DNA of 64,000 nt, taken from the NCBI GenBank assembly GCA_922989275.2, contig OV277861.1, positions 50,259,623-50,323,622 on the forward strand, given 5' to 3'. Shown piece by piece: positions 5,536 to 39,544 of the stretch (positions are counted from its first letter, which is position 1; every line of letters starts with the position of its first letter). Source of the DNA: Gari tellinella (taxonomy: Eukaryota > Mollusca > Bivalvia > Cardiida > Psammobiidae). The translations under genes and the position numbers were made by a program. The notes below the pieces were generated by a model that had not been told where the DNA came from, searched no databases, and worked only from the letters and a program-made list of their open reading frames with translations.

Positions 5536-5690
5536 ATGACATCGTTTAATCTAGTTCTACTGATCACAGTGGCTACTGGGGTCAAGGCACTGGACAATGG
5601 ACTTGCTCTGACTCCTCCAATGGGCTGGTTGTCATGGGAGGCGTTTGGATGTAACACAGACTGTGATAATGACCCAGATTATTGTCTCAG
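5536..5690 (+). CDS. Alpha-galactosidase exon 1 (start, signal peptide, barrel strand 1)
   Basis: It encodes a hydrophobic leader then [20 protein letters not shown], the GH27 N-terminus with PPMGW, and the CNTDC...YC cysteine cluster. The donor is CAG|gtaaat, and the exon ends after two bases of a Ser codon, as human GLA exon 1 does. I chose the ATG at 5,536 because 'ttgttaaatttcag' ends at 5,525 and looks like a 3' splice site, placing ten bases of 5' UTR before the ATG. An in-frame ATG at 5,482 would add 18 residues and cannot be excluded if there is no upstream exon. Confidence 0.9.
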
Positions 5691-26600: not shown

Positions 26601-29600
26601 GTATCAAACGGCAAGCTCATGCCAAACAAAACAGGCCACACTGAGACGTGTCATTCCTGAGTTATCGCCCTTGTTATATTTACATAAATTTTGTAAAATT
26701 TAAATATCTTAAAACTATGAAAGGTTATAACTTCAAACCTTGCATTCTTGTTAAATATCAAATGATAACTAGTTACAACAAGACAGGTTACTGTTTATTT
26801 GAAACTTCCAATACTTGTTAAGTATCAAATGGGCAACTAATTACAACAAGGCCGGCAAAGATAGTGTACTTGTTTATACTTACTGATTGCTTTAAGTGCA
26901 CTTAATAGGTGTAAAATCTTCAATACGTTCAATTAAACTAGATCATTTCACTAATCGCGGATCTCTCAGTGCTTTCAGCACTTTGATTTGTTACTGTATC
27001 AATTGGAACGATTTTCTTCAGAGGAGGAATAAATAAATAAAAGGCGTACCTATGGTGTAAAGTGTTAAAGGGCTTATCTATGGTGTAATGGGTTAAAGGG
27101 CTTATCTCTGGTGTAATGGGTTAAATGGCTTATCTATGGTGTAATGGGTTAAAGGGCATATCTATGGTGTAATGGGTTAAAGGGCTTATCTATGGTGTAA
27201 TGGGTTAAAGGGCATATCTATGGTGTAATGGGTTAAAGGGCATATCTATGGTGTAATGGGTTAAAGGTCTTATCTATGGTGTAATGGGTTAAAAGGCTTA
27301 TCTATGGTGTAATGGGTTAAAGGGCTTATCTATGGTGTAATGGGTTAAAGGGCATATCTATGGTGTAATGGGTTAAAGGGCTTATCTATGGTGTAATGGG
27401 TTAAAGGGCATATCTATGGTGTAATGGGTTAAAGGGCTTATCTATGGTGTAATGGGTTAAAGGGCTTATCTATGGTGTAATGGGTTAAAGGGCATATCTA
27501 TGGTGTAATGGGTTAAAGGGCTTATCTATGGTGTATTGGGTTAAAGGGCTTATCTATGGTGTAATGGGTTAAAGGGCATAACTATGGTGTAATGGGTTAA
27601 AGGGCATATCTATGGTGTAATGGGTTAAAGGGCTTATCTATGGTGTAATGGGTTAAAGGGCATATCTATGGTGTAATGGGTTAAAGGGCTTATCTATGGT
27701 GTAATGGGTTAAAGGGCATATCAATGGTGTAATGGGTTAAAGGGCTTATCTATGGTGTAATGGGTTAAAGGGCTTATCTATGGTGTAATGGGTTAAAAGG
27801 CATATCTATGGTGTAATGGGTTAAAGGGCTTATCTATGGTGTAAAGTGTTAAAGGGCATATCTATGGTGTAATGGGTTAAAGGGCTTATCTATGGTGTAA
27901 TGGGTTAAAGGGCATATCTATGGTGTAATGGGTTAAAGGGCATATCTATGGTGTAATGGGTTAAAGGGCTTATCTATGGTGTAATGGGTTAAAGGGCTTA
28001 TCTATGGTGTAATGGGTTAAAGGGCTTATCTATGGTGTAATGGGTTAAAGGGCTTATCTATGGTGTAATGGGTTAAAGGGCATATCTATGGTGTAATGGG
28101 TTAAAGGGCTTATCTATGGTGTAATGGGTTAAAGGGCTTATCTATGGTGTAATGGGTTAAATGGCTTATCTATGGTGTAATGGGTTAAAGGGCATATCTA
28201 TGGTGTAATGGGTTAAAGGGCATATCTATGGTGTAATGGGTTAAAGGGCTTATCTATGGTGTAATGGGTTAAAGGGCATATCTATGGTGTAATGGGTTAA
28301 AGGGCATATCTATGGTGTAATGGGTTAAAGGGCTTATCTATGGTGTAATGGGTTTAAGGGCTTATCTATGGTGTAAAGTGTTAAATGCTGTATCATTTGT
28401 TTTCAGTGAAAAGCTGATCATGCAGATGGCAGACCATCTAGTAGCTGATGGGTATAAGGATGTAGGCTATGAGTATGTCTGTATTGATGACTGTTGGCTT
28501 GCCCCACAAAGAGATATCTTCCACCGTCTACAGCCAGATCACAAACGCTTCCCTAGTGGCATGAAAAATTTGACAGATTATGTGAGTAATTCTGAAAAAC
28601 ATGTAGTCCCTAATACATGTTTTGGAGTTGTATTCTTAATTAAAGTTTGTACCCACTAAACTGTCTCTGTGTGCTTAACAAACACTTATAAGATTTTAAA
28701 GATAAATAATGCAATTTTTATATTTATTATTAAAACATATTTTCAAAAAATAGGTCCCAGATGTGTATTTCAGCCTAATTACATGCCATAGCAATCACTA
28801 GCTGGTCACTAGGTCGTTATCTCTCTGGCGATGACTCTGCCCTGCTTCTAATAAGCTGGAACCAGTTTCAATTTGTAGGTTTATGGTACTGAGAATTATA
28901 CTTCATATTTTCAATATGCGTCTAGACGACAACGTTACATGGCAAATGTAAATATGGTATAACCTGATATTGCCATTTACTCATTAACCCTTAGCCCGCC
29001 AAAAAAATTGTCGTCTGCTATATTTCTCGTCTGCTTCAAGTTTCAAAGTGCTTCAAAATTGCTCAAAATTGCTGAAAATGTTGTTCGAGTGTCAAACAGC
29101 TTGGATCCGGATGAGACGCCGAGTTACTCGGCGTCTCATCCGGATCCAAGCTGTTTGCATATGGAGCTATAGTCGTGATTGGCAGGCTAAGGGTTAAGAC
29201 CATAATCAGCAGATTATATAGAAACTATAGAAAATATAGAAACTTCTTTTAGAGCATTTAATTTATTCTTCCACTGAAGAAAATAGTTCCAACTCATACA
29301 GTCCTGAAAATGTACTGGAATAAATATTTTCTAAATTTAAGCAGATGATAATTAAGGCACATTCTGCCTTACTTTCAACCCGTCTTAAAGGGACTCGCAA
29401 CCGGATGGTGTACTTGTCAAAATAAAATAAAATACTCAAATAAAAGCAAATTTGTGGCATTATTTGGCTTCTGACATTAAAAAAATATGATCAGTCCAAA
29501 AAAAGTCTCAAGAATCGGCACCGAATCTTAGTTTTTTAAGATATTTTCCATCGTTTTTCTATAGCGTTAGCTAACGGTATAGTTGTTGTTGTTGCTTCTT

Positions 29601-32600
29601 TACACGGGCTCAGACATTAACCCGAGACGAATAAAGTAGTAAAAGTACTATCGATCGCTACTAGTGAAGTACGTTAATTCGCTACTATAGATATAGAGAG
29701 CGCTGGTAGCCGAGGTAGTATAGGAGCTTCTTCATTTTTTGCACGTTTCTCTCCGCATGGAGGGTCACGGGTTCGAATCCCACCAGGGCTTCTTCTTTTT
29801 TTTTTTTTTGAAATGGATTTTTTAACAGAATTTATTATCCTAAACTAAATCTTACCCATTTATATAAGCATTTGACATATATTTACAAATAACTATTTTT
29901 AATGCTAAATCCGGTTGCGAGCCTCTTTAAGGTGTCACCTGTCTTCAAAACTAGAAACAGGCTATGTGGTAAAGGGGTTGAATATAGGACAACAATGCTT
30001 TATAATGGGTTAACATAAGTGAGAATATTTGTTGTTGTCAGGTTCATTCTAAAGGTCTTAAACTGGGTATTTATGAAGACTTTGGTTCAAAGACCTGTGC
30101 TGGTTACCCGGGCAGTGAGTACTACATGGAGCTGGACGCCCACACCTTTGCTGAGTGGGGCATTGACTTGCTTAAATTTGATACCTGCAATTCAGATGCT
30201 CATGAGAACAAGTATGGTAAGCAAATTTATTTCATCACAAAATAGTTATCCCTGTAAACCTTTTATCAGCTATACAGGTTTTTAGCTCACCTGAATACTT
30301 TTGTAATACATGAATGCACCTTCATCTACTAAGGTTTATAACTTTGCATTGCAAACAGTTTGGATCCAGATGAAATGTCATCATATAATATGAAACATAT
30401 GAAAACTGTTTGACACTTATGTGGGTCTTATCCAGACCCATGTCGAAGATTGACGATGTTTGTATGGTTAAGTTATGTACTCGGCTCAGACATTAAATTA
30501 CCTAATGTTGCTATTATACATGTAAGTAGCCACTTGCCAAACAGAAATCCAAAACAGGATATTAAAATTGATTCAGGTTACTCACATAGTTTCCTATTTT
30601 ATAAAGTTAAACTGCTTTTTCATGAAAGACTAACATTTCAAAAGTATTGTCCACTAAACAAGTATTGTTCACTAGATTTTACTGTTTTCTCGAGCATTAA
30701 CCCATTACCCCATAGCCTTTTTCTTAAGTTGAAAACAGGTAACCACTTAAAGCAGGTTGAAAGTAAAGCAGAATGTGCCTTAAGGCACATTCTGCTTTAC
30801 TTTCAACCTGCTTTAAGCAACCATCTGCTAGAATATAAAAATATTTCTAATGTTCAATATTTTTAACTGTTCAAATTGGAACCATTTTCTGCAGTGGAGG
30901 AATAACTTAAAGGCGTAAAAAGGCGTATTTATGGGGTAATGGGTTAACTGTATTACTAGTCATGGGTTCATGGTAATATTTCAGGTTTCCCTGCTATGTC
31001 GCTGTACTTGAATCAGACAGGACGACCTATTTTGTTTTCTTGTGAATGGCCATATGGAGAGTTGCAGCAAAATCTTAGTGTATGTTCTTTTTCTTGATTC
31101 ATCTTTTTTTGTAGAGCTGCAATGCAAAAAGCACATACAACAAAACCTCTCTATTATGACCACTAAAAAGATAAAGATAAGTGGCATCAAATCTTCCAGC
31201 CAGGTTTTCTCTTGGCAGTACTCTTTATTTTTTAAAATTTTATATTCACTAAAGAGAAGGTTAATTAAATATATAAAAGACAGGCTACAGCTTAAAACAT
31301 GAGGAAAGTGAAACAGAGAGTTGTAATAGAGAGGTTTTGCTGTATAATTGTGTTACCAGTTTGTCTGTTTCTCCCAGATTAGTTGCACTGTAATTTTGTA
31401 AGAATCATTATAGGCATCCTGTATAATGTGAAACCTATCACAACATAGCCTGTTTCTAGTTTTTAAGACAGGTGAGTCGGTGACCAGTAACAGCAGACTG
31501 AAAGTAAAGCAGAATGTGCCTTAAGGGGCATTCTGTTTTACTTTTAGCCTGCCTTAACCCTTTATATCATAGTCTTTATCCAGTTTTGAAGACAGGTGAC
31601 CACTTGGAGCAGGTTGGAAGTAAAGCAGAATGTGCTTAAAGGCACATTATGCTTTACTTTCAGCCTGCTTTAAGCTACTATCTGCTAGGATATAGAAACT
31701 ATTTCTTATGATACTTATTCATGATTGTATAAATTGGAATTATTTTCTATAGTGGAGAAATAATTTAAAATACATTAAAATGCATATCTATGGAGTATTG
31801 GATTAAGCTACCATCTTCTATAAAATGCTTCTAACATTACATGAATGTATTCATGACAGTTTAAAGCTCTTTGTATTTCAGTCAAATTATGACCTTGTTG
31901 TTGAAGCTACATGTACTCTTTGAATTTCAGTCAGATTATGGTCATTGTAAGCAATTCATTGTATTTCAGTCAAATTATGGTCCTGTTGTTGAAGCTATTC
32001 TTTAAATTCCATTCAAATTATGGTCCTTTTGTTGAAGCTATTCTTTAGATTTCATTCAAATTATGATCCTGTTATTGAAGCTATTCTTTATATTTCAGTC
32101 AAATTATGGCCCAGTTGTTGAAGCTATTCTTTATATTTCAGTCAAATTATGGCCCTGTTCAGAAATACTGCAATATTTGGCGTAATTACTGGGATATCAG
32201 TGATGACTTTGGCAGTGTACAGCGTACCATTGACTACTATGCACAGAACAATGAGCTTTTCAGAAACTACTCTGGACCAGGTGGCTTTTTTGATCCCGAC
32301 ATGGTCAGTACACTGTACATCTTCTTCTTATTTATTTAACCCATTACCCCACTAATACACTTTTACGCCTTTATTTTATTCCTCCATTGAAGAAAAAGTT
32401 AAAATCTATACATTCATCAATATATATCACACAAACTATTTTCTATATTGTGGCTGATGGTTGCTTTAAATGGTGAACTATCTTCAAAACTAGAAACAGG
32501 CTATATGGGGTAATGGGTTAAGAGAGATTTTACTGTACTTTACTTTCATCCTGCTCTTAAGATTGAAACCTGAACTTTACCATAAAGATCTAAAGTCACA

Positions 32601-35600
32601 ATGATTACAGTTGAACGATATGTTATATTCACAAATATTAGTTTGTTGTTTTGTATGACCACACCAATTAGTTATGGGGCATACTGAATTGATGATTGTG
32701 AATATGTCACTTTTTTTGTGACGAGATGCCGAACTGAATTCATGTCTATTTCTTGTACATATAACTTGGACAAGAACCATTTGAGTTGAGTAAATAAATA
32801 CAGGACTTCTTCAGATGTGGATCATGAATGTTTCAAAATTCATAAGCAATGGTATTATTTGATATAGATATTAATTACATATTTTTGATAGTTCTGGTAA
32901 CCCATAATTCCATAAATTAAAACACCCTTTTACATCTCTAATTGATCCCTCCAGTGAAGAAATTAGCCTCAATTTGTACAGTCATGAATATGCATTATAT
33001 GCAACATAAGAAAATTTCTGATTTTCCTGCAAGTGGTAGCTTAAAGTAGGCTTTACTTTCAGCCTGCTTTAAGCTACAACTTGTTTAAAACATTGAAGAC
33101 AAGCTATGGGGAAAAGGGTTGAATATACAAAAAACTAGTTATGTCAGTTAATATACCGTATATATTTTGTCAACATGATTGATTTCCATATGGAAACTGT
33201 TTTAAATAGTTTGTAACTAAATATTTAAGTAGAAATCAAACTTTTTGTCCATATTTGCTCTTATAGAACTGAAGAGTTAGTTTCAGAATTAGTAGAGGTC
33301 ATTTTGAGCAGACAATATTTTTTCAGTATTAACCCATTTATCTGTTTCTAGTATTTAAGATAGGTGAACACTTAAAGCTGGTTGAAAGTAAAACAGAATG
33401 TGCCATAAGGCATATTCTGCTTTACTTTTAACTTGTTTAAACTACCATCCTCTAGAACATATAATCATATGATTTTATGTGAAGCGCTTTGGAAAGCACA
33501 ACTCTTGTGTGAAAAGAGCCCTATGTAACATCTGGTTTAAAAATTACATAAATAAGTAAATAAATAAATAACACTTTTAGCTCGCCTGTCCGTAGAACAG
33601 CAGAGCTAATGTCATACCCCCGGCGTGAGCGTGGGCATGAGCGTGGCCAAGGTTAAAGTTTTTTGGACGGGTTGTTTTAAAGCTTAATATTTGTGCTAGG
33701 GTTATAACATTTTGTATGGAGGTTCATTTGGGGTTAACTAAACATTGATGTTATGAAGTTTGAATTTAAAAATAATTTTAATTTATATCAATTTTTGACA
33801 TGTTTTGGAATTAGATTTTTCTACTACAAATCACCAGGTTAAAGTTTTTTGGACGGATTGTTTTAAAGCTTAATATTTGTGCTAGGGTTATACAATTTTG
33901 TATGGAGGTTCATTTGGGGTTAAACATTGATGTTATGAAGTTTGAATTTAAAAATAATTTTAATTTATATCAATTTTTTGACATGTTTTGGACTTAGATT
34001 TTTCTACTACAAATCACCAGGTTAAAGTTTTTTGGACGGGTTGTTTTAAAGCTTAATATTTTTGCTAGGGTGCTTAAATTTTGTATGGAGGTTCATTAGG
34101 GGTTAAGCATTGATGTTATGAAGTTGGAATTTAAAAATGATTTTAATTTATGTCAATTTTTGACATGTTTTGGACTTAGGTTTTTCGACTACAAACCACC
34201 AGGTTAAAGTTTTTTGGACGGGTTGTTTTAAAGTTTAATACTTGTGCTAGGGTGCTGAAATTTTGTATGGAGTTTCATTAGGGGTCAAACATTGATGTTA
34301 TGAAGCTGAAATTTAAAAATAATGTTAATATTTGTCATTTTTTGACACGTTTTGGACTTAGTTGTTTTGACTTCAAATCACATGGTTAAAGTTTAATATC
34401 ACTAAACTAAGACTCACCATTCATTTAATAATCTTTCTAAACTAAAAATTTATTTGTTTTGGATACAAGATGTTTTTAGACTGAAATTTCAAGCAGGTGA
34501 GCATCAGGTGGCTTAGACACCCATTTCTGGTTTGAATGATACACTCATTACTGTATAAATTGGAACTATTTTATTTAATGGAGGAGTAAACTAAAATTGT
34601 GTAAAGATGTGCAACTATGGAGTAATGGGTTAAATGTGTTTATTCAGGTGCTGGTTGGAGGGTATGGCCTCAGTGATGAATCACAAAGATCCCAAATGGC
34701 AATGTGGGCTATGTTCTCTGCACCATTGCTTATGTCCAATGATCTTAGAGCAGTGCCACCTAATGCTCGACAACTTGCCCAGAACAAACTGCTCATATCT
34801 GTAGACCAAGATCCACTAGGTGCAATGGCAAAAAAAATTTGGGAGGTATGTATTTAGAGTTGTTGTTGCTTTGTCTTGCTGCAATAAAGGAGGGAAAGAG
34901 AGAAATGTATTGATTTCCTGTCGGCAGTGCAGGTTGTGGCAATAAACACTCAGTGTTTGTGTCCTGACTAATTCTATGGAAACACTTACTAGAATTTTAT
35001 GAAATTTTGCAATACTTTTTTTTATTGTTTAACCCATTACCCCATAGACAGTTTCTAGTTTTGAAGACAAATGACCACTTGAAGCATATTGAAAGTAAAG
35101 CAGAATGTGCCTGAAAGCACATTCTGCTTTACTTTCAACCTGCTTTAAGCTACTATCTACTAGATTATAAGATATATTTTTTATGATACAAATTCATACC
35201 ATATTTTATTTTGTAGAGGAATAAATTAAACGAAAGGGGTACAAAGACTTATTTATGGGGTAATGGGTTAAAGTCAAATAGATTGTTGTAGATAAGGGTG
35301 CATGTGTTCAATGTCATTGGATTATCATAATCCTGTGTAGCTACTGCAAATATATTTTTAGCTGCAAATCTGCCTAGTAATTATATGGAAGGAGTTTTAT
35401 GCATTTTAAGTCGTGTATACATGTATATGCATGTTTAACCCATTAATAATCTGTTGTTGGTATTGGAGCTTTCTGTATTAACATGTTTGTTGATAGTTAA
35501 AACATTAGTATTTTTATGTCCCAGCATGATGTAGTCAGGGGCATATTGCTCTGTCTGTCTGTTTGTTTGTCTTTTATGTAGGCCATAACTTTGAAATTAC

Positions 35601-38600
35601 ATGTAACAGAGACTTCATAGTTGGCATGTGTACTCAACACAAGAAACTCTTGAGCTTAGTACAACTTGGGTCATTTGTGACAAAGGTCCAGGTCATTTAT
35701 AGGTAATTTAGACGTCTAAAAGGCAACTGCATAGGATATAGAGATTTCATCATTTTGGTGACAACTTAAGGCAAGTTGAAAATAAAGCAGAATGTGCCTT
35801 AAGGCACATTCTGCTTTACTTTCAGCCTGCTTAAAGCTACAACCTGTTAGGATATAGAAAATATTTCTTGTGAGCATTCATGACTTTATAAATTGAAACC
35901 ATTTTCTTCTGTGGAAGAACAAATTAAAAGCATATAGATCTTTGATTTCAAAACAGCAATGATTTCTCTTTGTACAAACAGAAGTGATTTATCTTTGCAG
36001 AAACAGCAACAAATTTTCTTTTCACAAACAGCAGTGATTTCTCTTTGCACAAACAGCAGCAATTTCTCTTTGCACAAGCAGTAGTGACTTATTTTTGCAC
36101 AAATAGTAGTGATTTCTATTTGCACAAACTGCAGTATTCTATTACACAAACAGCAGGAGTAGTTTCTTCTTGGTACAAACAGTTACAGCAGTGATTTCTC
36201 TTTGCACAAACAGCAGTGATTTCACTCTGCAAAAACAGCAGTGATTTCTCTTTGCACAAATAGCAGCGATTTCTAGTCTCACAAACAGCAGTGACTTCTT
36301 TTTGCACAAATAGTAGCAATTTTTCTTTGCATAAACTGCAGCTATTTTTCTATGCACAAACAGCAGTGATTTATCTTTGAACAAACTGTATTAATTTCGC
36401 TGCATAAACAGTAGTGATTTCTCTATACACAAACAGCAGTGCTTTCTCTTTTCACAAACTGCAGCAATTCTCTTTTCACAAACTGCAGTGCATGTCATAA
36501 GCTTTAAATGTTGTTCTTTATACTGTTACAGAAAAGTGGAGTACAGATATGGGTGAAACCAATGTCCCCCGAAGGCAGTGTAGCAGTAACAATTCTTAAC
36601 ACTAGCAAAGCCAGTGGCTTTAGTGGGACAGTTGTGACACGGAATGCTAGTAGTATTGAATTGACAGCTCCACAAGGATACTCTGTCACTGAAGTCTTCA
36701 CAGGAAAAAATATTGGAACATTTACCCCACAGTCTGTGCTGAAAACAAGAATTTTCCCCTTTGATGCATACATGATAATATGTAAAATTTTGTAATATTA
36801 CATTCATAGATTTCAATAGTTGTACAGTAACCTTTTACTCTAGTGCACCTTTTAGCGCATTAAATTTTTTGCCCTATTGAAGAAAATGGTCACAAACATG
36901 AAAAAAAAAATATAAAAATTTCTAGCAGATGGTTGCTAAAAGCAGGCTAAAAGAATTAAGCATGCTTTACTTCCAACCTCCTTCAAGTGGTCACCTACTA
37001 TCCTAAACTATTATGAAGGGTAAGCATGTATTAACATTAAATAGTGTAATAAGTTTGCCCTGCATTCATAGAAGTACTTAAATTCTTGTTATACCTTTCC
37101 TGTGCGACATATGACCATCTCATGTGTGGCGGTGCTGTAAAACTCAACTCAATCAATCATGTTTAGAGAGTTAATGGATTGATATTTTATAGTAAATATA
37201 ATGATGCATTTATTTGGCACAAAAGGTTTCACCACTGAGGCTTCAAACGTACAACTTTTAATTTCGCAATTAACCCATAACCCCATTAACATGCCTTTTT
37301 ACACCTTTAATTAATTCCTCTACTGAATTTATACCAATTTATACTGTCACAAATAAAAATCATAAGAAATAGTTTCTATATTATAGCAGATAATAGCTTA
37401 AAGCAAGCTGAAAGTAAAGCAGAATGTGCCTTAGGGCACATTCTGCTTTACATTCAACCTGCTTTCAGTTGTCACATATCTTCAAAACTAGAAACAGGAG
37501 ATTTGGTAATGGATTAAGTCTGGTCCAACTTTACGTATTTATGGATGATTTTAACCATATACCAGGGCTCCAGATAAGGGGGGTATTTCAAAAACTAAAA
37601 TCTTTATTTCTAAATTAAACCCTATGGTGTCACTACTCATTAGAATCGTCTCTTTGAGACGATTCTAATGAGTAGTAACACCATAGGAGTTGATGCTGAA
37701 ATGAGTGAGAAAATGTTGAATTTGTTTAATTTACTCCTTCTTATCTGGAGCCCTGTATACATATATTACGAAATGTCAAACAGATCTCTTGGTTCAGGGT
37801 CTACACTGTTTTCATGGGAAAAATGTACTCTTCACATGTACACTGTTTGTGAATGTTGTGTATACTTGTTGTTAGGGTTGAATGTGTTAAATGTTTTTGT
37901 TTGTCTTGTTTACAAATGATTGGTACTCAACAATACATTAACTCCTTGAATGCCATGAAAGAATCTGCTTTGAACAATTGATGTTTGCTTTATTTTCTAA
38001 AACTTAATTTTAGTAAAATTGACAAAAGTAATATCATATTGAATGTCCAACAGTTTGAATCATGACCAGATGCCATATTACTAAACTTGGTGTCTGGTCA
38101 GGATCCAAACTGTTTGCAAAGAATCATTGTTCTTATGGTAAGGCAGTGAAGGGGTTTATAGTTGTATATAATTCAATAAAACTTGTCTATGACAACCACT
38201 GAAAGGAAGAATAAATGATTGTATGAAAGGCAGGTGTCATCTTGACTTAAAGCAAGATGAAATTAAAACAGAAATCTCCTATAGGAGCTTTCTGTTTTAC
38301 TTTCACCTTGTTTTAAGTGATCACCTGTTTTAAACACATACTAATTAACACAATTTAGTGGTCATTGTAGAGAGGTTTTACTGTATACTGGCTGAACTCT
38401 AATCACCTTTTCTTTGTGCATGCTATCACTTGTTAGTACATGTAAGCTTTATATGTTGCAGTACAAAACATTCAAATCCATACAGTAAGAACTGAGTTAA
38501 CATTAATCCATTAACCCATAGCCTGCTTCTAGTAGTGAAGATAGTAGATCACTTAAAGCAGGTTGAAAGTAAAGCAGAATGTGCTTTAAGGCACATTCTG

Positions 38601-39544
38601 CTTATTTTCAGCCTACTTTTAAGCTACCATCTACTAGAAAATACAAATTATATCTTATGATAAATACTCATAATTGTATAAATTGGAACTATTTTTTTTA
38701 GTGGAGGAATAAACTAGAGGCATAAAAAGGGGTATTTATGGGTTAAAGGGTTAAAAGAAAAGTGACTGTTTAGGTCAGGTAAAAGTAATACAGAAAGTGC
38801 CAAAGGGTAGCCTCCTGTATTTACTCTGTCCTCCCATTGGCCATGAACCATGCACCGTTCTTTTAATGCTTATTGTTAAAATGGCGTAAGAGAGTTTTTA
38901 TTATGCCCCTGCTATAATCAATCTTGGGCATACTGTTCCTGCTGTGGAATATTGAGTTAACCCATTACCCCATAGCCTGTTTCTAGTTTTGAAAATAGGT
39001 GGCTACTTAAAGCAGGTTGAAAGTAAAGCAGAATGCGCCTTATGGCACATTCTGCCTTACTTTCAGCCTGCTTTAAGCTATTATCTGCTAGGATTTAGAA
39101 AATATTTCTTATGGTATATTTTCATAACAGTATAAATTGGGACTAGTTTCTTCATTGTAGGGATAAATTAAAGGAGTAAAAAGATGTATTTATGGGGTAA
39201 TGGGTTAAATGGTCTCCCTCAGCAAAGGTTTGAGTGTTACAACTAGAGTATTTTTTGTCTTAGTATAACTAACATCTCTTCTTCAGGTCAATGGACTTCA
39301 ACTCTGGGTTAAACCTATTACTCCCAAAGGTAGTTTAGCAATTACATTCTTCAATACAGGGAGTCACAGTGGAACTCCTGTCAATATGACTGCAGGAAAT
39401 ATTGGAATGACAGACCCAAGAGGGTATATGGTCACAGAGGTGTTCAGTGGATCAAGTCTGGGTAAAGTCATGCCTGATATGTACCTCAAGTTTAGAGTGT
39501 TTACATTTGATTCTGAAATGTTCATTTGCAAGATTGTGTCATAA
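5536..39544 (+). CDS. GH27 alpha-galactosidase / alpha-N-acetylgalactosaminidase homologue (whole spliced gene)
   Basis: Joined exons are 5536-5690, 28407-28581, 30042-30216, 30985-31079, 32142-32303, 34648-34845, then either 36532-36795 (7a) or 39287-39544 (7b). All junctions keep frame and use GT/AG, giving 407 or 405 residues; human GLA is 429 and NAGA 411. The family removes terminal alpha-galactose or alpha-GalNAc from glycoconjugates in lysosomes or outside the cell. Visible features: signal peptide (residues 1-18, cleavage after GVKA), PPMGW, CIDDCW (Asp79/Asp80), LLKFD with the probable nucleophile Asp157, CEWP (Glu189), and WRNYWD with the probable acid/base Asp218. Cys39/43/50/81 and Cys129/159 match the conserved disulfides, and NxS/T sites lie at 106, 178, 198 and 242. 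Exons 1-6 encode the TIM barrel and exon 7 the C-terminal beta-sandwich. Glu189 matches the GLA residue that selects galactose (Ser in NAGA), so galactose is the likelier sugar. The acceptor-like sequence 10 bp before the ATG suggests an unseen 5' UTR exon. Confidence 0.93.
5780..6170. repeat. Diverged 'tatgccccg...ggggca' type interspersed repeat
   Basis: It contains 'catgccacgccatgatttag', 'gagggcatattgtttttgcc', 'gtctgtgtgtccacaactt' and repeated 'gggtcat(g/a)tc(t/a)gacaaag' and 'caaggtcattt'. It matches the repeats at 26,118 and 35,516 in order. No coding function. Confidence 0.55.
6225..6618. mobile_element. Two T1 hairpin MITE copies, one diverged and one truncated
   Basis: A diverged copy (~6,225-6,430) has the hairpin arm 'attaaaagtaaagcagaatt'. 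A second copy starts with TTAACCCATTACCCCATAGC at ~6,450, has a clean central hairpin near 6,505-6,570, and stops at 'gatttttattgatc', where unrelated GC-rich repeat sequence begins. Confidence 0.7.
6619..6663. repeat. TAGCG pentanucleotide repeat with inverted ends
   Basis: About five units of 'tagcg/cagcg' are bracketed by 'ccgcga' and 'tcgcgg', so the whole can fold as a hairpin. It lies exactly at the break point of the truncated T1 MITE. Confidence 0.75.
6905..7118. repeat. Two-copy ~112-bp tandem duplication, GC-richer than surroundings
   Basis: 'gcgaaaatcgctgatgtccg' followed by 'ttttacgaagcatactcggt' and 'cctgtccgtatagccaatag' occurs at about 6,905 and 7,017 with very few differences. 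The flanks (about 6,620-7,620) are also richer in CpG than the rest of the intron. No gene is recognised there. Confidence 0.8.
7640..7800. mobile_element. H-type hairpin element
   Basis: The arms 'caggttggcaaacagattgg' and 'ccaacctgtttgcaatgg' surround a 'cagacgtcaggttacccggc' centre. This is the same hairpin type that is abundant at 44-63 kb. Confidence 0.6.
8078..10010. mobile_element. ~1.9-kb foldback element with long inverted arms, interrupted by a nested element
   Basis: The left arm starts 'agtggctagacgtccggaac' and the reverse complement of the right end reads 'agtggctatagctgtccggt'. The arms then stay alignable through 'gctagacgtccggaata', 'atatactgc', 'gttagtgcctgg' and, further in, 'ggaattaa(a/t)ttacc' and 'cgcatccgcca' (left ~8,278-8,325, right ~8,935-8,985). 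The inverted arms are therefore about 280-300 bp once the insertion at 9,090-9,914 is removed. No transposase frame is recognised. Its superfamily is unresolved. Confidence 0.7.
9090..9914. mobile_element. Nested 825-bp element with CAGGGGTGT termini
   Basis: It starts CAGGGGTGTAAA and ends TTTGACACCCCTG. It is immediately flanked by TATAT on both sides (possible 5-bp target duplication) and lies inside the right arm of the foldback element. Subterminal 'ctactcgccct' and 'actcgcccgac' motifs repeat inside both ends. The termini look hAT-like, but the flanking repeat is 5 and not 8 bp. The small reading frames within (9,541-9,973) are not recognised. Confidence 0.65.
10222..10780. repeat. Fragment of the 'tttacactctagaggccac' repeat element
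   Basis: It shares 'tttacaccccagaggccac', 'caatctttctcaaacttgct' and the terminal 'ggtgagcgatatcagggcct' with the larger elements at 12,555 and 16,120. It is a shorter, diverged copy lacking the left end. Confidence 0.75.
10781..11734. other. Intron sequence, nothing recognised
   Basis: AT-rich sequence with a weak 'gcagtgtagaccc'-like hairpin remnant near 10,905-10,970. No exon, RNA gene or clean repeat boundary could be supported. Confidence 0.4.
11735..12279 (-). mobile_element. TTAA-flanked TIR element with tRNA-like cassette (family T4, copy 2, inverted)
   Basis: Ends TTAAAGCGACTCACAACC and GGTTGCGAGTCCCTTTAA form the TIRs and TTAA target. On the minus strand the B box GGTTCGAATCC (complement at 11,885-11,895) and the A-box region 'tggtccattggtctaagcgg' (complement near 11,937-11,956) form the tRNA-like cassette. 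The non-tRNA parts match copy 3 (29,395-29,930) closely on the minus strand, while the tRNA-like part differs more. Confidence 0.78.
12280..12554. other. Intron sequence, nothing recognised
   Basis: Mixed-composition sequence between two mobile elements. It is slightly CpG-richer near 12,340-12,500, but no exon or motif can be named. Confidence 0.4.
13113..14164 (+). mobile_element. 1,052-bp TTAA-flanked element with tRNA-like cassette (family T5), nested
   Basis: The ends TTAAGGTGGTTCG and CGAACCACCTTAA are perfect inverted repeats including TTAA. The host unit elsewhere reads 'atatttaacagtgtttac' with a single TTAA, so the TTAA was duplicated on insertion. Inside is a tRNA-like cassette: A-box-like TTAGAGCAGTTGA near 13,250 and B box GGTTCGATTCC at 13,295-13,305, followed by a T-run at 13,321. 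No coding frame is recognised in the remainder. Confidence 0.75.
13250..13305 (+). promoter_or_regulatory. tRNA-like Pol III internal promoter inside the T5 element
   Basis: TTAGAGCAGTTGA and GGTTCGATTCC are spaced as A and B boxes. A T-run of ten bases (13,321-13,330) could act as a Pol III terminator. A full cloverleaf was not established. Confidence 0.6.
14816..16119. other. Intron sequence with a weak P1-type hairpin fragment and one unclassified open stretch
   Basis: A diverged TA-type hairpin fragment ('cagtgaaacaattaaaagca' ... 'ctgctttactttcatctt') lies at about 15,560-15,660. At 15,808-16,043 a stretch of higher complexity has acceptor-like 'ttcaacag' and donor-like 'aag|gtaaat' flanks, but no frame stays open across it. 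The 64-codon frame at 15,852-16,046 matches nothing I recognise and is not part of the GH27 protein. Confidence 0.35.
16120..17520. mobile_element. Second copy of the 'gtgagcgatatcagg' repeat element, uninterrupted
   Basis: It has the same opening ('agctcagggtgagcttttgc', then short 'gtccgtcatccgtcg' repeats) and the same internal ~160-bp tandem units and ending as the 12,555 copy, but without the TTAA insertion. It is therefore the natural comparison for the empty insertion site. Confidence 0.75.
18115..22930. mobile_element. ~4.8-kb element with ~490-bp terminal inverted repeats
   Basis: The left arm (18,130-18,610) and the reverse complement of the right arm (22,430-22,925) match over their length. 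Matching landmarks include TTAACCTTGCTTGGAG, 'tttttgtggtttttggtaga', 'catcaaggatccgatgtatg', 'gatggcgtccaagatggccg', 'aggtttgattcaataagc' and 'gctccagttttttcccgtcg'. The interior carries repeated 'caaaatggcgtccaaaatgg' motifs (18,410; 18,780; 18,962) and a minus-strand LINE remnant. No DNA transposase is visible, so it looks like a non-autonomous composite. It lies wholly in intron 1. Confidence 0.75.
20230..21370 (-). pseudogene. Degraded non-LTR retrotransposon reverse transcriptase remnant
   Basis: On the minus strand near 21,265-21,330 the frame reads [11 protein letters not shown], the RT motif around the first catalytic Asp of LINE-type enzymes. Further downstream on the same strand (20,500-20,400) [11 protein letters not shown]... 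followed by a CYGQ segment resembles the 'RWMCGV ... WYGH' C-terminal stretch of many LINE ORFs. The two lie in the correct order about 0.9 kb apart, but stops and frame changes intervene. It is a dead fragment inside the 4.8-kb inverted-repeat element. Confidence 0.6.
23107..23290. mobile_element. P2 hairpin MITE ('cagggctccagataag' family), diverged
   Basis: It starts 'cagggctccacataag' and ends 'ttatctgaaaccctgta', with central 'ccattcattagaattgtctt' / 'aacaggattctaataagtag'. It is related to the cleaner copies at 37,561 and 40,673. Confidence 0.65.
23700..23870 (+). pseudogene. Possible PIF/Harbinger transposase fragment
   Basis: After the acceptor-like 'ctatctattgcag' the frame reads [22 protein letters not shown]. 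The 'IIACVVLHN' pattern is characteristic of the C-terminal part of DDE_Tnp_4 (Harbinger) transposases. Only this short stretch is recognisable, and surrounding sequence in the same frame (from 23,581) shows no further family features. Tentative. Confidence 0.35.
23995..24471. mobile_element. P2-type MITE split by an inserted stretch with a (GT)n run
   Basis: The left part 'gtcagcaccaaatcctatgg' and right part 'ccaattctaatgaacagtcg...gcggagccctga' are P2 landmarks. Between them, TCTTCTTTCGTATTTAT occurs as a 17-bp direct repeat at 24,043 and 24,348 bounding the extra sequence, and a GT dinucleotide run lies at about 24,255-24,272. The open frame at 23,987-24,241 is within this sequence and is not recognised. 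Confidence 0.55.
24784..25660. mobile_element. 'tacgcccacctctaaaggtgg' element with ~160-bp tandem units
   Basis: It opens 'tatacgcccacctctaaagg', with 'tgttcgtttgttcgtccgtc' typical of this kind of mollusc repeat. Units marked by 'cttgtccggaggtttctggg', 'gatattaatgaaacttcaca' and 'tgcccttgatgtactcaaat' then recur near 24,860, 25,021 and 25,181, followed by diverged units. Short frames inside are repeat artefacts. Confidence 0.7.
26118..26330. repeat. 'tatgccccgcacgacttagt' interspersed repeat
   Basis: It contains a 5' inverted motif 'tatgccccgcacgac...ggggcaaatcg', then 'tctgtctgtttgtctgtaca' and 'gggtcatgtctggcaaagg'. Related copies are at 5,780 and 35,516. Just inside it is the hairpin 'ctgacctcaagaagctcttgaggtcag' (26,250-26,276). 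Confidence 0.65.
27041..28384 (+). repeat. 48-unit, 28-bp minisatellite ending 22 bp before exon 2
   Basis: The unit is AGGGCTTATCTATGGTGTAA followed by TGGGTTAA. Counting by eye gives 48 units, 1,344 bp, with no indels. Two main variants differ at one position (GGCTTATC versus GGCATATC), interspersed irregularly. The sequence just left (26,990-27,050: 'atcaattggaacgattttct', 'cagaggaggaataaataaat', 'aaaggcgtacctatggtg') is the long arm of a T1 MITE. The first unit is that MITE's own terminal 28 bp, so the array has grown from a transposon end. The last unit ends GTGTTAA, followed by 22 bp and the exon 2 acceptor. Confidence 0.95.
28407..28581 (+). CDS. Alpha-galactosidase exon 2
   Basis: 175 nt, the same length as human GLA exon 2. 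The acceptor is 'catttgttttcag|T' and the donor TAT|gtgagt. It encodes [20 protein letters not shown], then [16 protein letters not shown] with the substrate-binding Asp pair and disulfide Cys81, and [13 protein letters not shown] (N-glycosylation site Asn106). It starts with the last base of the Ser codon begun in exon 1 and ends in phase 0. Confidence 0.95.
28984..29197. mobile_element. T2 hairpin element (214 bp, copy a)
   Basis: Ends TTAACCCTTAGCCCGCC and GGCAGGCTAAGGGTTAA. The central hairpin has arms GGATCCGGATGAGACGCCGA and its complement. Nearly identical 214-bp copies are at 41,872-42,085 and, inverted, at 43,646-43,859. There is no coding capacity. Confidence 0.9.
29240..29972. mobile_element. 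T1 MITE split by a T4 element
   Basis: The left half ('agcatttaatttattcttcc' to 'gccttactttcaacccgtct') and right half ('ggtgtcacctgtcttcaaaa' to 'tatgtggtaaaggggttga') are one T1 MITE. Its arm normally reads 'caacctgctttaagtggtca'. The T4 element (29,395-29,930) sits exactly at that TTAA, which is duplicated. Confidence 0.85.
29395..29930 (+). mobile_element. TTAA-flanked TIR element with tRNA-like cassette (family T4, copy 3)
   Basis: Ends TTAAAGGGACTCGCAACCGG and CCGGTTGCGAGCCTCTTTAA. The tRNA-like cassette has 'gctggtagccgaggtagt' as A-box region (29,703-29,720) and the B box GGTTCGAATCC at 29,771-29,781, then a T-rich run. The body aligns with the minus strand of copy 2 nearly base for base before the cassette. 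Confidence 0.82.
30042..30216 (+). CDS. Alpha-galactosidase exon 3 (catalytic nucleophile)
   Basis: The acceptor is 'tttgttgttgtcag|GTT' and the donor TATG|gtaagc. It encodes [40 protein letters not shown] and IDLLKFDTC. Asp157 in LLKFD matches the GLA nucleophile Asp170, and Cys129-Cys159 matches the Cys142-Cys172 disulfide. 175 nt versus 178 in human GLA (one residue less). Ends in phase 1. Confidence 0.95.
30697..30947 (+). mobile_element. T1 hairpin MITE ending 37 bp before exon 4
   Basis: A complete copy of 251 bp with TTAACCCATTACCCC and GGGGTAATGGGTTAA ends. The hairpin runs 'aaagcaggttgaaagtaaag' ... 'tgccttaaggca' ... complement. The long arm contains 'ccattttctgcag|tggagg', which looks like a cryptic 3' splice site. 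The 138-codon frame at 30,450-30,866 merely reads through it. Confidence 0.9.
30985..31079 (+). CDS. Alpha-galactosidase exon 4 (substrate-recognition loop)
   Basis: The acceptor is 'catggtaatatttcag|GT' and the donor CTTAGT|gtatgt, chosen because it keeps frame with exon 5 and matches a donor consensus downstream of the cut. It encodes [20 protein letters not shown], then [12 protein letters not shown]. Glu189 corresponds to GLA Glu203, whereas NAGA has Ser there. The next two positions (Leu206-Tyr207 in GLA) are Tyr-Gly here. 95 nt versus 92 in human GLA. Confidence 0.9.
31135..31344. mobile_element. P1 TA-flanked MITE ('acctctctattatgacca' family)
   Basis: Ends 'taCAACAAAACCTCTCTATT' and 'AATAGAGAGGTTTTGCTGta' are inverted and flanked by TA, as in mariner/Tc1-type MITEs. 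It lies in intron 4. Other copies are at 38,170, 42,575 and 42,949. Confidence 0.75.
31435..31806. mobile_element. Two adjacent T1 MITE copies
   Basis: The first (31,440-31,560) is partial, with the hairpin 'aaagtaaagcagaatgtgcc' / 'ggcattctgttttactttt'. The second (~31,556-31,806) has a full hairpin and long arm, ending 'atctatggagtattggatta', a diverged form of the GGGTAATGGGTTAA terminus. Both are in intron 4. Confidence 0.75.
31866..32141 (+). repeat. Tandem array of exon-5 3' splice sites (43-bp unit)
   Basis: The unit is TCAAATTATGGTCCTGTTGT, TGAAGCTATTCTTTATATTT, CAG. Exon-start copies begin at 31,882, 31,931, 31,970, 32,013, 32,056, 32,099 and, as the true exon, 32,142. The last four steps are exactly 43 bp, the first two 49 and 39. 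Five copies keep the CAG acceptor; those before 32,013 and 32,056 have CAT. Each upstream copy repeats the first ~17 nt of exon 5 and then diverges. 43 is not a multiple of three, and every upstream copy leads to an early stop when read in the phase set by exon 4. Confidence 0.95.
32142..32303 (+). CDS. Alpha-galactosidase exon 5 (catalytic acid/base)
   Basis: 162 nt, identical in length to human GLA exon 5, phase 0 at both ends. Acceptor 'tctttatatttcag|TCA', donor ATG|gtcagt. It encodes [20 protein letters not shown], with Asp218 in WRNYWD matching GLA Asp231, and ends [13 protein letters not shown] has GGWNDPDM, so the Trp-Asn pair is Phe-Phe here. The upstream in-frame ATG seen in a longer frame belongs to the acceptor array, not the protein. 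Confidence 0.95.
32337..33480. mobile_element. Intron 5 cluster of diverged T1 MITEs
   Basis: Copies are recognisable at ~32,337-32,521 (TTAACCCATTACCCCAC...TATGGGGTAATGGGTTAA, hairpin core largely deleted), ~32,890-33,122 (partial hairpin 'taggctttactttcagcctg') and ~33,330-33,480 (hairpin 'gttgaaagtaaaacagaatg'). The space between (32,522-32,890) holds no recognised feature. Confidence 0.7.
33575..34525. mobile_element. 'tagctcgcctgtccgtagaa' element with four ~182-bp tandem units
   Basis: It opens 'tttttagctcgcctgtccgt' and closes 'caggtgagcatcaggtggct', inverted relative to each other. The inside is a tandem array marked by 'aggttaaagttttttggacg', 'ttgttttaaagcttaatatt', 'gtatggaggttcat' and 'atcaatttttgacatgtttt', with starts near 33,655, 33,838, 34,020, 34,203 and a partial fifth near 34,384. 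No coding frame. Confidence 0.8.
34551..34633 (+). mobile_element. Solo T1 MITE right arm ending 14 bp before exon 6
   Basis: Only the long-arm end is present: 'ctgtataaattggaactatt', 'taatggaggagtaaactaaa' and 'tatggagtaatgggttaa', the left end being lost. It leaves only 14 bp (34,634-34,647) before the exon, so any branch point and the upstream part of the pyrimidine tract must lie in transposon-derived sequence. Confidence 0.8.
34648..34845 (+). CDS. Alpha-galactosidase exon 6
   Basis: 198 nt, identical in length to human GLA exon 6, phase 0 at both ends. Acceptor 'atgtgtttattcag|GTG', donor GAG|gtatgt. It encodes [38 protein letters not shown] and SVDQDPLG, the conserved end of the TIM barrel. 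It ends KKIWE, at the domain border. Both terminal exons 7a and 7b can follow in frame. Confidence 0.95.
35029..35271 (+). mobile_element. T1 hairpin MITE, complete, in intron 6
   Basis: TTAACCCATTACCCCATAGA and TATGGGGTAATGGGTTAA ends, with a central hairpin 'attgaaagtaaagcagaatg' / 'cattctgctttactttcaac'. Confidence 0.9.
35516..35942. repeat. 'tatgtcccagcatgatgtag' repeat followed by a T1 MITE without a right end
   Basis: 35,516-35,710 is the same repeat type as at 26,118. 35,740-35,942 is a T1 MITE (hairpin 'aataaagcagaatgtgcctt'...) whose long arm runs 'aaaccattttcttctgtgga', 'gaacaaattaaaagcatata' and then passes into the 25-bp array with no TTAA end. Confidence 0.7.
35942..36490 (+). 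repeat. 25-bp minisatellite of pyrimidine-run plus CAG, just before exon 7a
   Basis: The unit is close to GTGATTTCTCTTTG followed by CACAAACAGCA, about 22 imperfect copies, ending some 42 bp before exon 7a. Each unit holds a T/C-rich run followed by ACAG or ACAGCAG, so it resembles a weak 3' splice site on the + strand. The minus-strand open frames at 35,886-36,384 are produced by the repeat and are not genes. Confidence 0.9.
36532..36795 (+). CDS. Alpha-galactosidase terminal exon 7a (C-terminal beta domain, version a)
   Basis: Acceptor 'ctttatactgttacag|AAA', phase 0, 87 codons then TAA. It begins [20 protein letters not shown] and contains [10 protein letters not shown] and [11 protein letters not shown]. 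It corresponds to human GLA exon 7 (the antiparallel beta-sandwich after QDPLG). It is homologous throughout to exon 7b, by eye about 40-45% identical, with one NxS site (RNASS) not shared. No canonical AATAAA was found close behind the stop; ATTAAA occurs near 36,860. Confidence 0.92.
   Translation, partial: KSGVQIWVKPMSPEGSVAVTILNTSKASGFSGTVVTRNASSIELTAPQGYSVTEVFTGKNIGTFTPQSVLKTRIFPFDAYMIICKIL
36835..37520. mobile_element. T1 MITE copies downstream of exon 7a
   Basis: A diverged copy spans ~36,840-37,017. A better one (37,270-37,517) has ends TTAACCCATAACCCC and 'tttggtaatggattaa' with the hairpin 'gaaagtaaagcagaatgtgc' / 'gcacattctgctttacattc'. Confidence 0.75.
37561..37760. mobile_element. 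P2 hairpin MITE, clean copy
   Basis: Ends CAGGGCTCCAGATAAG and CTTATCTGGAGCCCTG. A perfect central hairpin is built from 'cattagaatcgtctctttga' and 'gagacgattctaatgagtag'. It matches 40,673-40,872 almost throughout. Confidence 0.85.
38039..38754. mobile_element. H-type hairpin, P1 MITE and T1 MITE in a row (intron before exon 7b)
   Basis: 38,050-38,120: hairpin 'caacagtttgaatcatgacc' / 'ggtcaggatccaaactgttt'. 38,170-38,385: P1 MITE with hairpin 'acagaaatctcctataggag' and terminal 'gagaggttttactgta'. 38,503-38,754: T1 MITE with TTAATCCATTAACCC and GGGTTAAAGGGTTAA ends. Confidence 0.75.
38957..39208 (+). mobile_element. T1 hairpin MITE ending 78 bp before exon 7b
   Basis: A complete 252-bp copy with TTAACCCATTACCCCATAGC and GGGGTAATGGGTTAA ends. 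The long arm faces exon 7b, as also seen before exons 2, 4, 5, 6 and 7a. Confidence 0.9.
39287..39544 (+). CDS. Alpha-galactosidase terminal exon 7b (C-terminal beta domain, version b)
   Basis: Acceptor 'aacatctcttcttcag|GTC', phase 0, 85 codons then TAA. It begins [20 protein letters not shown] and contains [10 protein letters not shown] and [10 protein letters not shown]. It aligns with exon 7a along its whole length, with a three-residue gap. The frame is intact, the conserved WVKP, GY.VTEVF and ICKI positions are kept, and the differences include many conservative ones, so this looks like a functional exon and not a relic. It is used only if 7a is skipped, since 7a carries a stop. It has no long frame starting at ATG and is easily missed by ORF searches. 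Confidence 0.9.
   Translation, partial: VNGLQLWVKPITPKGSLAITFFNTGSHSGTPVNMTAGNIGMTDPRGYMVTEVFSGSSLGKVMPDMYLKFRVFTFDSEMFICKIVS

What the first reader, a model, noticed from the sequence alone, without database searches (positions are those of the whole stretch)
36532..39544. Duplicated terminal exon gives an alpha-galactosidase with two interchangeable C-terminal beta domains
Exons 7a and 7b both start in phase 0 directly after exon 6 (ending KKIWE), each has a strong acceptor and its own stop, and their 85-87 residue products align end to end (WVKP, GY.VTEVF and ICKI conserved) at roughly 40-45% identity by eye. In GLA/NAGA this exon encodes the whole C-terminal beta-sandwich, so the gene appears able to attach two different beta domains to one TIM barrel. 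Known: GLA and NAGA have one such exon. Inferred: alternative splicing plus alternative polyadenylation, possibly altering dimerisation, stability or targeting.
Basis: partly seen in the sequence, partly recalled or inferred. Interest (0 to 1): 0.78.

Follow-up and report, generated by a model that had tools for sequence, protein, structure and literature searches.

The report
Duplicated last exon in bivalve alpha-galactosidase
A bivalve gene for the sugar-cutting enzyme alpha-galactosidase carries two intact, old and quite different copies of its last exon, so it can probably make two versions of the enzyme with different tail domains; similar arrangements are known in other genes, and its use here has not been shown.

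Summary
The window holds a complete alpha-galactosidase A-like (GH27) gene: exon 1 at 5536-5690, exons 2-6 at 28407-34845, then two homologous terminal exons, 7a (36532-36795, 87 aa) and 7b (39287-39544, 85 aa). Both join exon 6 in phase 0, have a CAG acceptor and their own stop. They are 50% identical (42 of 84), with synonymous sites near saturation (dS at least 1.07) and dN/dS below 0.41, which makes it unlikely that either copy has been neutral since the duplication. Both are predicted with high confidence to fold as the GH27 C-terminal beta-sandwich. No second barrel lies nearby. Of 8 GH27 genes found in this genome, only this one has two terminal sets. Best reading: alternative last exons giving two enzyme isoforms. 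No transcript evidence was found, relatives' DNA was out of reach, and no functional difference or dimerisation effect was tested. The architecture has a close bivalve precedent, oyster alternative oxidase with a duplicated terminal exon (PMC5589949, abstract and passages). New member of a known kind.

The parts
5536..5690 (+). exon 1, coding part (ATG, signal-peptide-like start, [13 protein letters not shown])
   Evidence: tblastn of relatives; donor AG|gtaaat; frame checked
28407..28581 (+). exon 2
30042..30216 (+). exon 3 (holds the KFD motif, the nucleophile by recall)
30985..31079 (+). exon 4
32142..32303 (+). exon 5 (holds the DPD motif, the acid/base by recall)
34648..34845 (+). exon 6, last shared exon, ends in phase 0
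36532..36795 (+). terminal exon 7a with stop, 87 aa beta-sandwich
   Evidence: PF17801 38.6 bits; pLDDT 94.7
39287..39544 (+). terminal exon 7b with stop, 85 aa beta-sandwich
   Evidence: PF17801 26 bits; pLDDT 96.2
35951..36490 (+). 25-bp tandem array (21 copies) 41 nt upstream of exon 7a; 14 acceptor-like sites
   Evidence: any role in splicing is inference

Best explanation
One alpha-galactosidase A-like gene with a tandemly duplicated terminal exon. Exon 6 is joined either to 7a or to 7b, each of which ends the reading frame, so the gene makes two enzymes (407 and 405 aa) with the same TIM barrel and a different C-terminal beta-sandwich. Shown: gene structure, homology, intact frames, matching phase, long-term coding constraint and predicted fold of each domain. 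Inferred: both junctions are used, the choice is regulated, and the isoforms differ in something other than the active site, whose known residues (by recall) lie in the shared barrel.
For: Same phase, CAG acceptors and own stops. 50% aa identity with third-position identity 0.39 against 0.76 at second positions. NG86 dS 2.0 (bootstrap at least 1.07) and dN 0.40 (0.28-0.54), dN/dS upper bound 0.41; a copy neutral ever since the duplication would by itself add dN of about 0.53 at the lowest dS and about 1 at the point estimate. Columns invariant in 7 relatives are kept more than variable ones: 7a 23 of 33 against 20 of 52, p=0.007; 7b 27 of 33 against 26 of 52, p=0.005 (weak evidence, since 'majority residue' at variable columns need not be the ancestral one). 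Both fold confidently as the GLA/NAGA C-terminal domain, Foldseek TM 0.80-0.88. No other barrel exons between them or up to about 44 kb past 7b. Only 1 of 8 GH27 genes found has two terminal sets. Bivalve precedent with both forms expressed (PMC5589949).
Against: No transcript evidence: the third protein search returned 6 proteins from 79 candidates, and none of the 4 read spans a 6-7a or 6-7b junction of this species; the other two are listed at 35-36% identity. None of the 120 relatives listed shows two C-termini on one barrel, but the database is clustered at 90% identity and a 7a/7b-like pair would be about 89% identical overall, so this is weak. Both copies lost sites invariant in the relatives (10 and 6 of 33), whereas 6 of 7 relatives lose at most 2 in leave-one-out and the seventh 7 of 40. 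The barrel is also on a longer branch (0.22 against 0.06-0.16 in its group), so some relaxation of the whole gene is possible.
Confidence: 0.8

Rival explanations
1. Only one exon is used now; the other was used after the duplication and has fallen silent recently, before stops accumulated. 7a, the more diverged one, would be the likelier relic.
For: 7a is less like the relatives than 7b in 6 of the 7 closest (e.g. 53% against 64% to Mercenaria), scores a little lower on a profile of those 7 (109.6 against 114.8 bits), has lost 10 of 33 invariant sites and has the longer end branch (0.71 against 0.55). Partial exon copies exist in two sister genes. No transcripts were seen.
Against: Intact frame, acceptor and phase in both copies. 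In a substitutions-only simulation 2.4% of neutral copies kept an open frame at 1 substitution per site, 17% at 0.25. dN is low for long neutrality. 7a matches Pfam Melibiase_C better than 7b (38.6 against 26 bits). Recent silencing is not excluded by any of these.
Confidence: 0.13
2. Both exons are used, but through competing 3' splice sites with one shared 3' end: the 7a message runs through, with 7b as part of its 3' untranslated region, and no separate polyadenylation is involved. (A variant of the best explanation; its odds overlap with it.)
For: This is how the oyster AOX gene with a duplicated terminal exon is reported to work (PMC5589949 passages). The poly(A) signals after 7a are not distinctive: ATTAAA at +64 and +241 and AATAAA at +557 from the stop, with G+T fractions of 0.33-0.55 downstream.
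Against: Canonical AATAAA signals do lie between 7a and 7b (37352, 38175, 38210, 38708); a 3' UTR of more than 2.7 kb would be needed. Consensus signals alone decide nothing.
Confidence: 0.35
3. Partial gene duplication or assembly artefact: 7b is the remains of a second tandem gene, or a misplaced haplotype.
For: GH27 genes do occur in clusters here (8 found, all on contig C6).
Against: No remnant of exons 2-6 between 7a and 7b or up to about 44 kb past 7b. 50% identity excludes an allele. 7b follows an in-phase acceptor.
Confidence: 0.03

Closest known systems
Alternative oxidase (AOX) of the oysters Crassostrea virginica and C. gigas, duplicated terminal exon 10 (PMC5589949; abstract and passages seen)
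   Same: Bivalve gene with a tandemly duplicated terminal exon, each copy with a stop; products of the same size; the first copy is the more diverged one; both spliced.
   Different: 41 residues, not a whole domain; expression shown there, not here; the AOXB message includes both copies; different enzyme.
Drosophila pip (eight homologous mutually exclusive terminal exons) and PGRP-LC (3' variable regions chosen by competing RNA structures) (PMC9013439; passages seen)
   Same: A common upstream part joined to one of several homologous terminal exons.
   Different: Insect genes, more copies in pip; RNA-structure control was not looked for here.
Human capping protein beta, homologous 3'-terminal exons with multiple poly(A) sites (PMC3228551; passages seen)
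   Same: Homologous terminal exons of similar length and frame.
   Different: Poly(A) sites are described there; the mode is unknown here.
Insect serpin genes with alternative C-terminal exons (PMC10513286; passages seen)
   Same: Alternative C-terminal exons multiply one protein's products.
   Different: Many exons, 44-50 aa in PpSerpin-1; reactive-centre diversity (title in its reference list). Here a separate, non-catalytic domain is exchanged.
GLA / NAGA and mollusc GH27 enzymes (PDB 1r46, 3h53, 1ktb; Mya, Mercenaria, Mactra proteins)
   Same: Same barrel (72-79% identity to the 7 closest relatives) and same beta-sandwich fold.
   Different: One C-terminus per barrel among the relatives listed (clustering at 90% could hide pairs).

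Membership tests
GH27 alpha-galactosidase A / NAGA family | Melibiase_2 TIM barrel | tested here: met
   PF16499, E 1.3e-109; human GLA E 1.9e-100
GH27 alpha-galactosidase A / NAGA family | catalytic KFD and DPD aspartates (roles recalled) | tested here: met
   aligned with LLKFDGC and GPGGWNDPDM of human GLA
GH27 alpha-galactosidase A / NAGA family | C-terminal beta-sandwich domain | tested here: met
   PF17801, cut-off 22.9: 7a 38.6 bits alone, 34.5 in the full protein; 7b 26 alone but 22.0 in the full protein, just below. PF17450, cut-off 22.5: 7a 21.2-21.7, below; 7b not listed. Folds match GLA/NAGA
GLA rather than NAGA specificity | Glu then Leu in the SCEWPL motif (human GLA 203/206, recalled) | tested here: inconclusive
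   window has SCEWPY: Glu kept, second position differs; activity not testable
Tandemly duplicated alternative terminal exons | homologous tandem exons of like length, same phase, own acceptor and stop | tested here: met
Tandemly duplicated alternative terminal exons | no separate upstream gene body for the second copy | tested here: met
Tandemly duplicated alternative terminal exons | both junctions present in mature transcripts | not testable with these tools
   no reads; protein search showed no junction of this species
Alternative last exons with separate poly(A) sites | cleavage site after each copy | tested here: inconclusive
   AATAAA/ATTAAA after both stops but none distinctive

The most novel reading that the evidence does not exclude
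A lysosomal-type glycosidase that swaps its whole non-catalytic beta-sandwich by splicing, giving one catalytic barrel two oligomeric states or destinations (for example lysosomal against secreted or digestive). The choice would be tuned by a rapidly evolving array of about 14 acceptor-like decoys directly in front of the proximal exon (35951-36490).
Probability: 0.12. Interest if true: 0.65.

Novelty: new member of a known kind. Interest (0 to 1): 0.45.

Why it matters
The role of the C-terminal domain of GLA/NAGA is mostly known from disease mutants and crystal structures (recalled). A natural gene that pairs one barrel with two diverged C-terminal domains would let the domain's contribution to stability, dimerisation and targeting be tested with the barrel held constant. 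It would also add a second enzyme gene to the oyster AOX case of duplicated terminal exons in bivalves.

Tried and rejected
Age and polarity of the duplication: both copies fall with the 7 closest AGAL-like proteins (9-row set, 99/98 in the 29-row tree; only 80/89 in the 14-row tree), but whether 7a and 7b are sisters is unresolved. Holding them together is not rejected (p-AU 0.52 with 29 rows, 0.12 with 14 rows); neither is 7b with the 7 relatives (0.41) nor 7a with them (0.15). 7b beside Mercenaria has only 80/80 and 85/85 support. One residue is shared by 7a and 7b and absent from the 7 relatives (F at alignment column 77), too little to decide.

C-terminal domains specially accelerated: not clear. 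The C-terminal to barrel distance ratio is 2.7 (7a) and 2.2 (7b) against a mean of 2.06 (1.19-2.87, 21 pairs) among relatives.

Shared flanking DNA as a trace of the duplicated block: intron and 3' flanks give many matches, on both strands, that I read as interspersed palindromic repeats, and nothing next to the exons.

Isoform pairs among relatives: 2 pairs of the 120 proteins have barrels over 90% alike and C-termini under 80% (P0019/P0015, 244 of 269 and 72 of 93; P0117/P0027, 249 of 269 and 64 of 85). Their barrels differ too, so I read them as different genes or species; this was not followed up.

Transcript fragments: the search with exon 6+7a and 6+7b aligned gave 6 proteins of 79 candidates. 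Four were read; P0121, P0122 and P0126 look like exon-6 reading frames running into intron and P0124 is a distant relative. P0123 and P0125 were not read. A search with the 7b part alone found one relative already known, P0004.

Ruditapes 'isoform X2' (P0008) ends a few residues after exon 6: not a second beta domain. The promoter/terminator scan is bacterial in design and told nothing. The two dS values (2.9 and 2.0) come from two alignments. The first joined frame that included exon 1 started two bases off and was corrected. A recalled-motif scan for exon 1 in 10000-28400 found nothing because exon 1 lies further upstream.

Full report
What is there. The window lies on contig C6 of a 1.6-Gb assembly. 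The gene has coding exons 5536-5690, 28407-28581, 30042-30216, 30985-31079, 32142-32303 and 34648-34845, with GT/AG borders, and two possible last exons, 36532-36795 (7a) and 39287-39544 (7b). Joined, they give 407- and 405-aa proteins without internal stops. Intron 1 is 22.7 kb; 7a lies 1686 nt and 7b 4441 nt after exon 6; 2491 nt separate the stop of 7a from 7b (from the coordinates).

Identity. The barrel matches Pfam Melibiase_2 (E 1.3e-109) and human alpha-galactosidase A (E 1.9e-100) with the KFD and DPD motifs in place. Alone, the C-terminal parts match Melibiase_C (7a 38.6 bits, 7b 26.0 bits, cut-off 22.9); in the full proteins 7a gives 34.5 and 7b 22.0, just under the cut-off. AlphaFold models of each exon product, built with 65 of the proteins found, have mean pLDDT 94.7 and 96.2 and the same order of seven strands and one short helix. 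Foldseek places both on human GLA and on NAGA structures, TM 0.80-0.88 by query length. The models are of single domains, not of the whole enzyme or a dimer, and alignments made of relatives favour the family fold, so they show compatibility with the fold and not function.

Are both under constraint? 42 of 84 aligned residues are identical. Nucleotide identity is 0.63, 0.76 and 0.39 at codon positions 1, 2 and 3. NG86 gives dS 2.0-2.9 (bootstrap lower bound 1.07), dN 0.39-0.40 (0.28-0.54), dN/dS upper bound 0.41. If branches are about equal, a copy that had been neutral for its whole life would add dN of at least half of dS, which at the lower bound (0.53) is already at the upper limit of the total dN observed; NG86 near saturation is rough, so this is strong but not final. 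In both copies columns invariant among 7 relatives are better kept than variable ones. Recent silencing of one copy cannot be excluded. Against the reading: both copies have lost more of those invariant sites (10 and 6 of 33) than 6 of the 7 relatives in leave-one-out (P0006 loses 7 of 40), and five of those columns are changed in both (1, 27, 28, 36, 65).

Controls inside the genome. A search with the barrel listed 33 exon matches, all on C6 (counts are lower bounds). With profile models of exons 2-7 over the stretches fetched (four regions), 8 GH27 genes appear: the window gene, and those near 50.22, 50.24, 48.49, 39.25, 11.59, 11.60 and 11.61 Mb. The other 7 each have one terminal set; in 4 of them the domain matches two separate pieces. 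The gene at 50.24 Mb carries a partial second copy of exon 2 as two pieces in different frames, and the gene at 48.49 Mb a 22-residue second copy of the start of exon 1 (E 0.002-0.016). So partial exon copies do occur in this family here, and 7a/7b, both full-length and in frame, look different from them. The downstream stretch examined for the window gene reaches C6:50343622.

When did it arise? Unresolved. Both exons sit with the closest AGAL-like proteins, but 85 residues cannot say whether they are sisters. None of the 120 listed relatives shows two C-termini on one barrel, but only the best 120 of 7615 are listed, and the database is clustered at 90% identity while a pair like this one would be about 89% identical, so similar pairs could be hidden. 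Genomic DNA of the relatives was not within reach. A lineage-specific origin is possible but not shown.

How it most likely works. A polymerase that has passed exon 6 meets 7a first; use of 7a ends the protein there, skipping of it gives 7b. Whether 7a messages end at their own poly(A) site or run on through 7b is open. AATAAA or ATTAAA signals follow both stops, none distinctive, and the oyster AOX gene uses a run-on arrangement. A 25-bp tandem array ends 41 nt before exon 7a and holds 14 acceptor-like sites in 540 bp: 26 per kb, against 13 per kb in intron 6 as a whole, 6.6 between 7a and 7b and 4.9 in 10 kb of intron 1 under the same simple rule. It could compete with 7a; this is inference. 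The catalytic residues (recalled) are in the shared barrel, so a difference in stability, partner contacts, glycosylation (N-x-S/T sites at different places in 7a and 7b) or routing is more likely than a change of chemistry; none of this was tested.

What is known. Duplicated terminal exons used alternatively are an established kind: Drosophila pip and PGRP-LC (PMC9013439, passages), human CapB (PMC3228551, passages), insect serpins (PMC10513286, passages) and, closest, oyster AOX (PMC5589949, abstract and passages). A search for alpha-galactosidase with bivalve and alternative splicing found no paper. A search for GLA, alternative splicing and exon 7 gave 16 papers, 10 listed, whose titles and abstract openings concern human disease or splicing. 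A search for exon duplication, bivalve, alternative splicing and terminal exon (3 of 4 terms) gave 21, 12 listed, the oyster paper being the only one with a bivalve in its title. Within those three searches of one open-licence library I saw no report of this gene structure. It is a new member of a known kind.

Noticed in passing
31868-32159: A 43-bp tandem array, 6.7 copies, whose unit includes the exon 5 acceptor and the first codons of exon 5; five of the seven copies listed keep an acceptor-like CAG, the true one included, so an intron-exon border has been multiplied.
   Followed up: partly
27038-28385 and 35951-36490: Minisatellites of 28 bp (48 copies) and 25 bp (21 copies) end 21 and 41 nt before exons 2 and 7a; with the array that overlaps the start of exon 5, three of the seven acceptors have a tandem array at or right in front of them.
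   Followed up: partly
G000:C6 11.59-11.62, 39.25, 48.49, 50.22-50.30 Mb: All 8 GH27 genes found lie on one contig; in four of them the C-terminal domain matches two separate pieces.
   Followed up: partly
G000:C6:50242840-50243207 (-) and 48485747-48485812 (+): Partial second copies of exon 2 and of the start of exon 1 in other GH27 genes.
   Followed up: partly
window, e.g. 30760, 31501, 33385, 35092, 37411, 38566, 39020, 41393: A palindromic interspersed repeat: the pattern AAAGTAAA[GA]CAGAATG occurs 11 times on the + strand and 9 times on the other, many inside introns of this gene.
   Followed up: no
P0008 (Ruditapes philippinarum isoform X2): A database isoform of a close relative that ends with a few unrelated residues right after exon 6 and so lacks the beta domain.
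   Followed up: no
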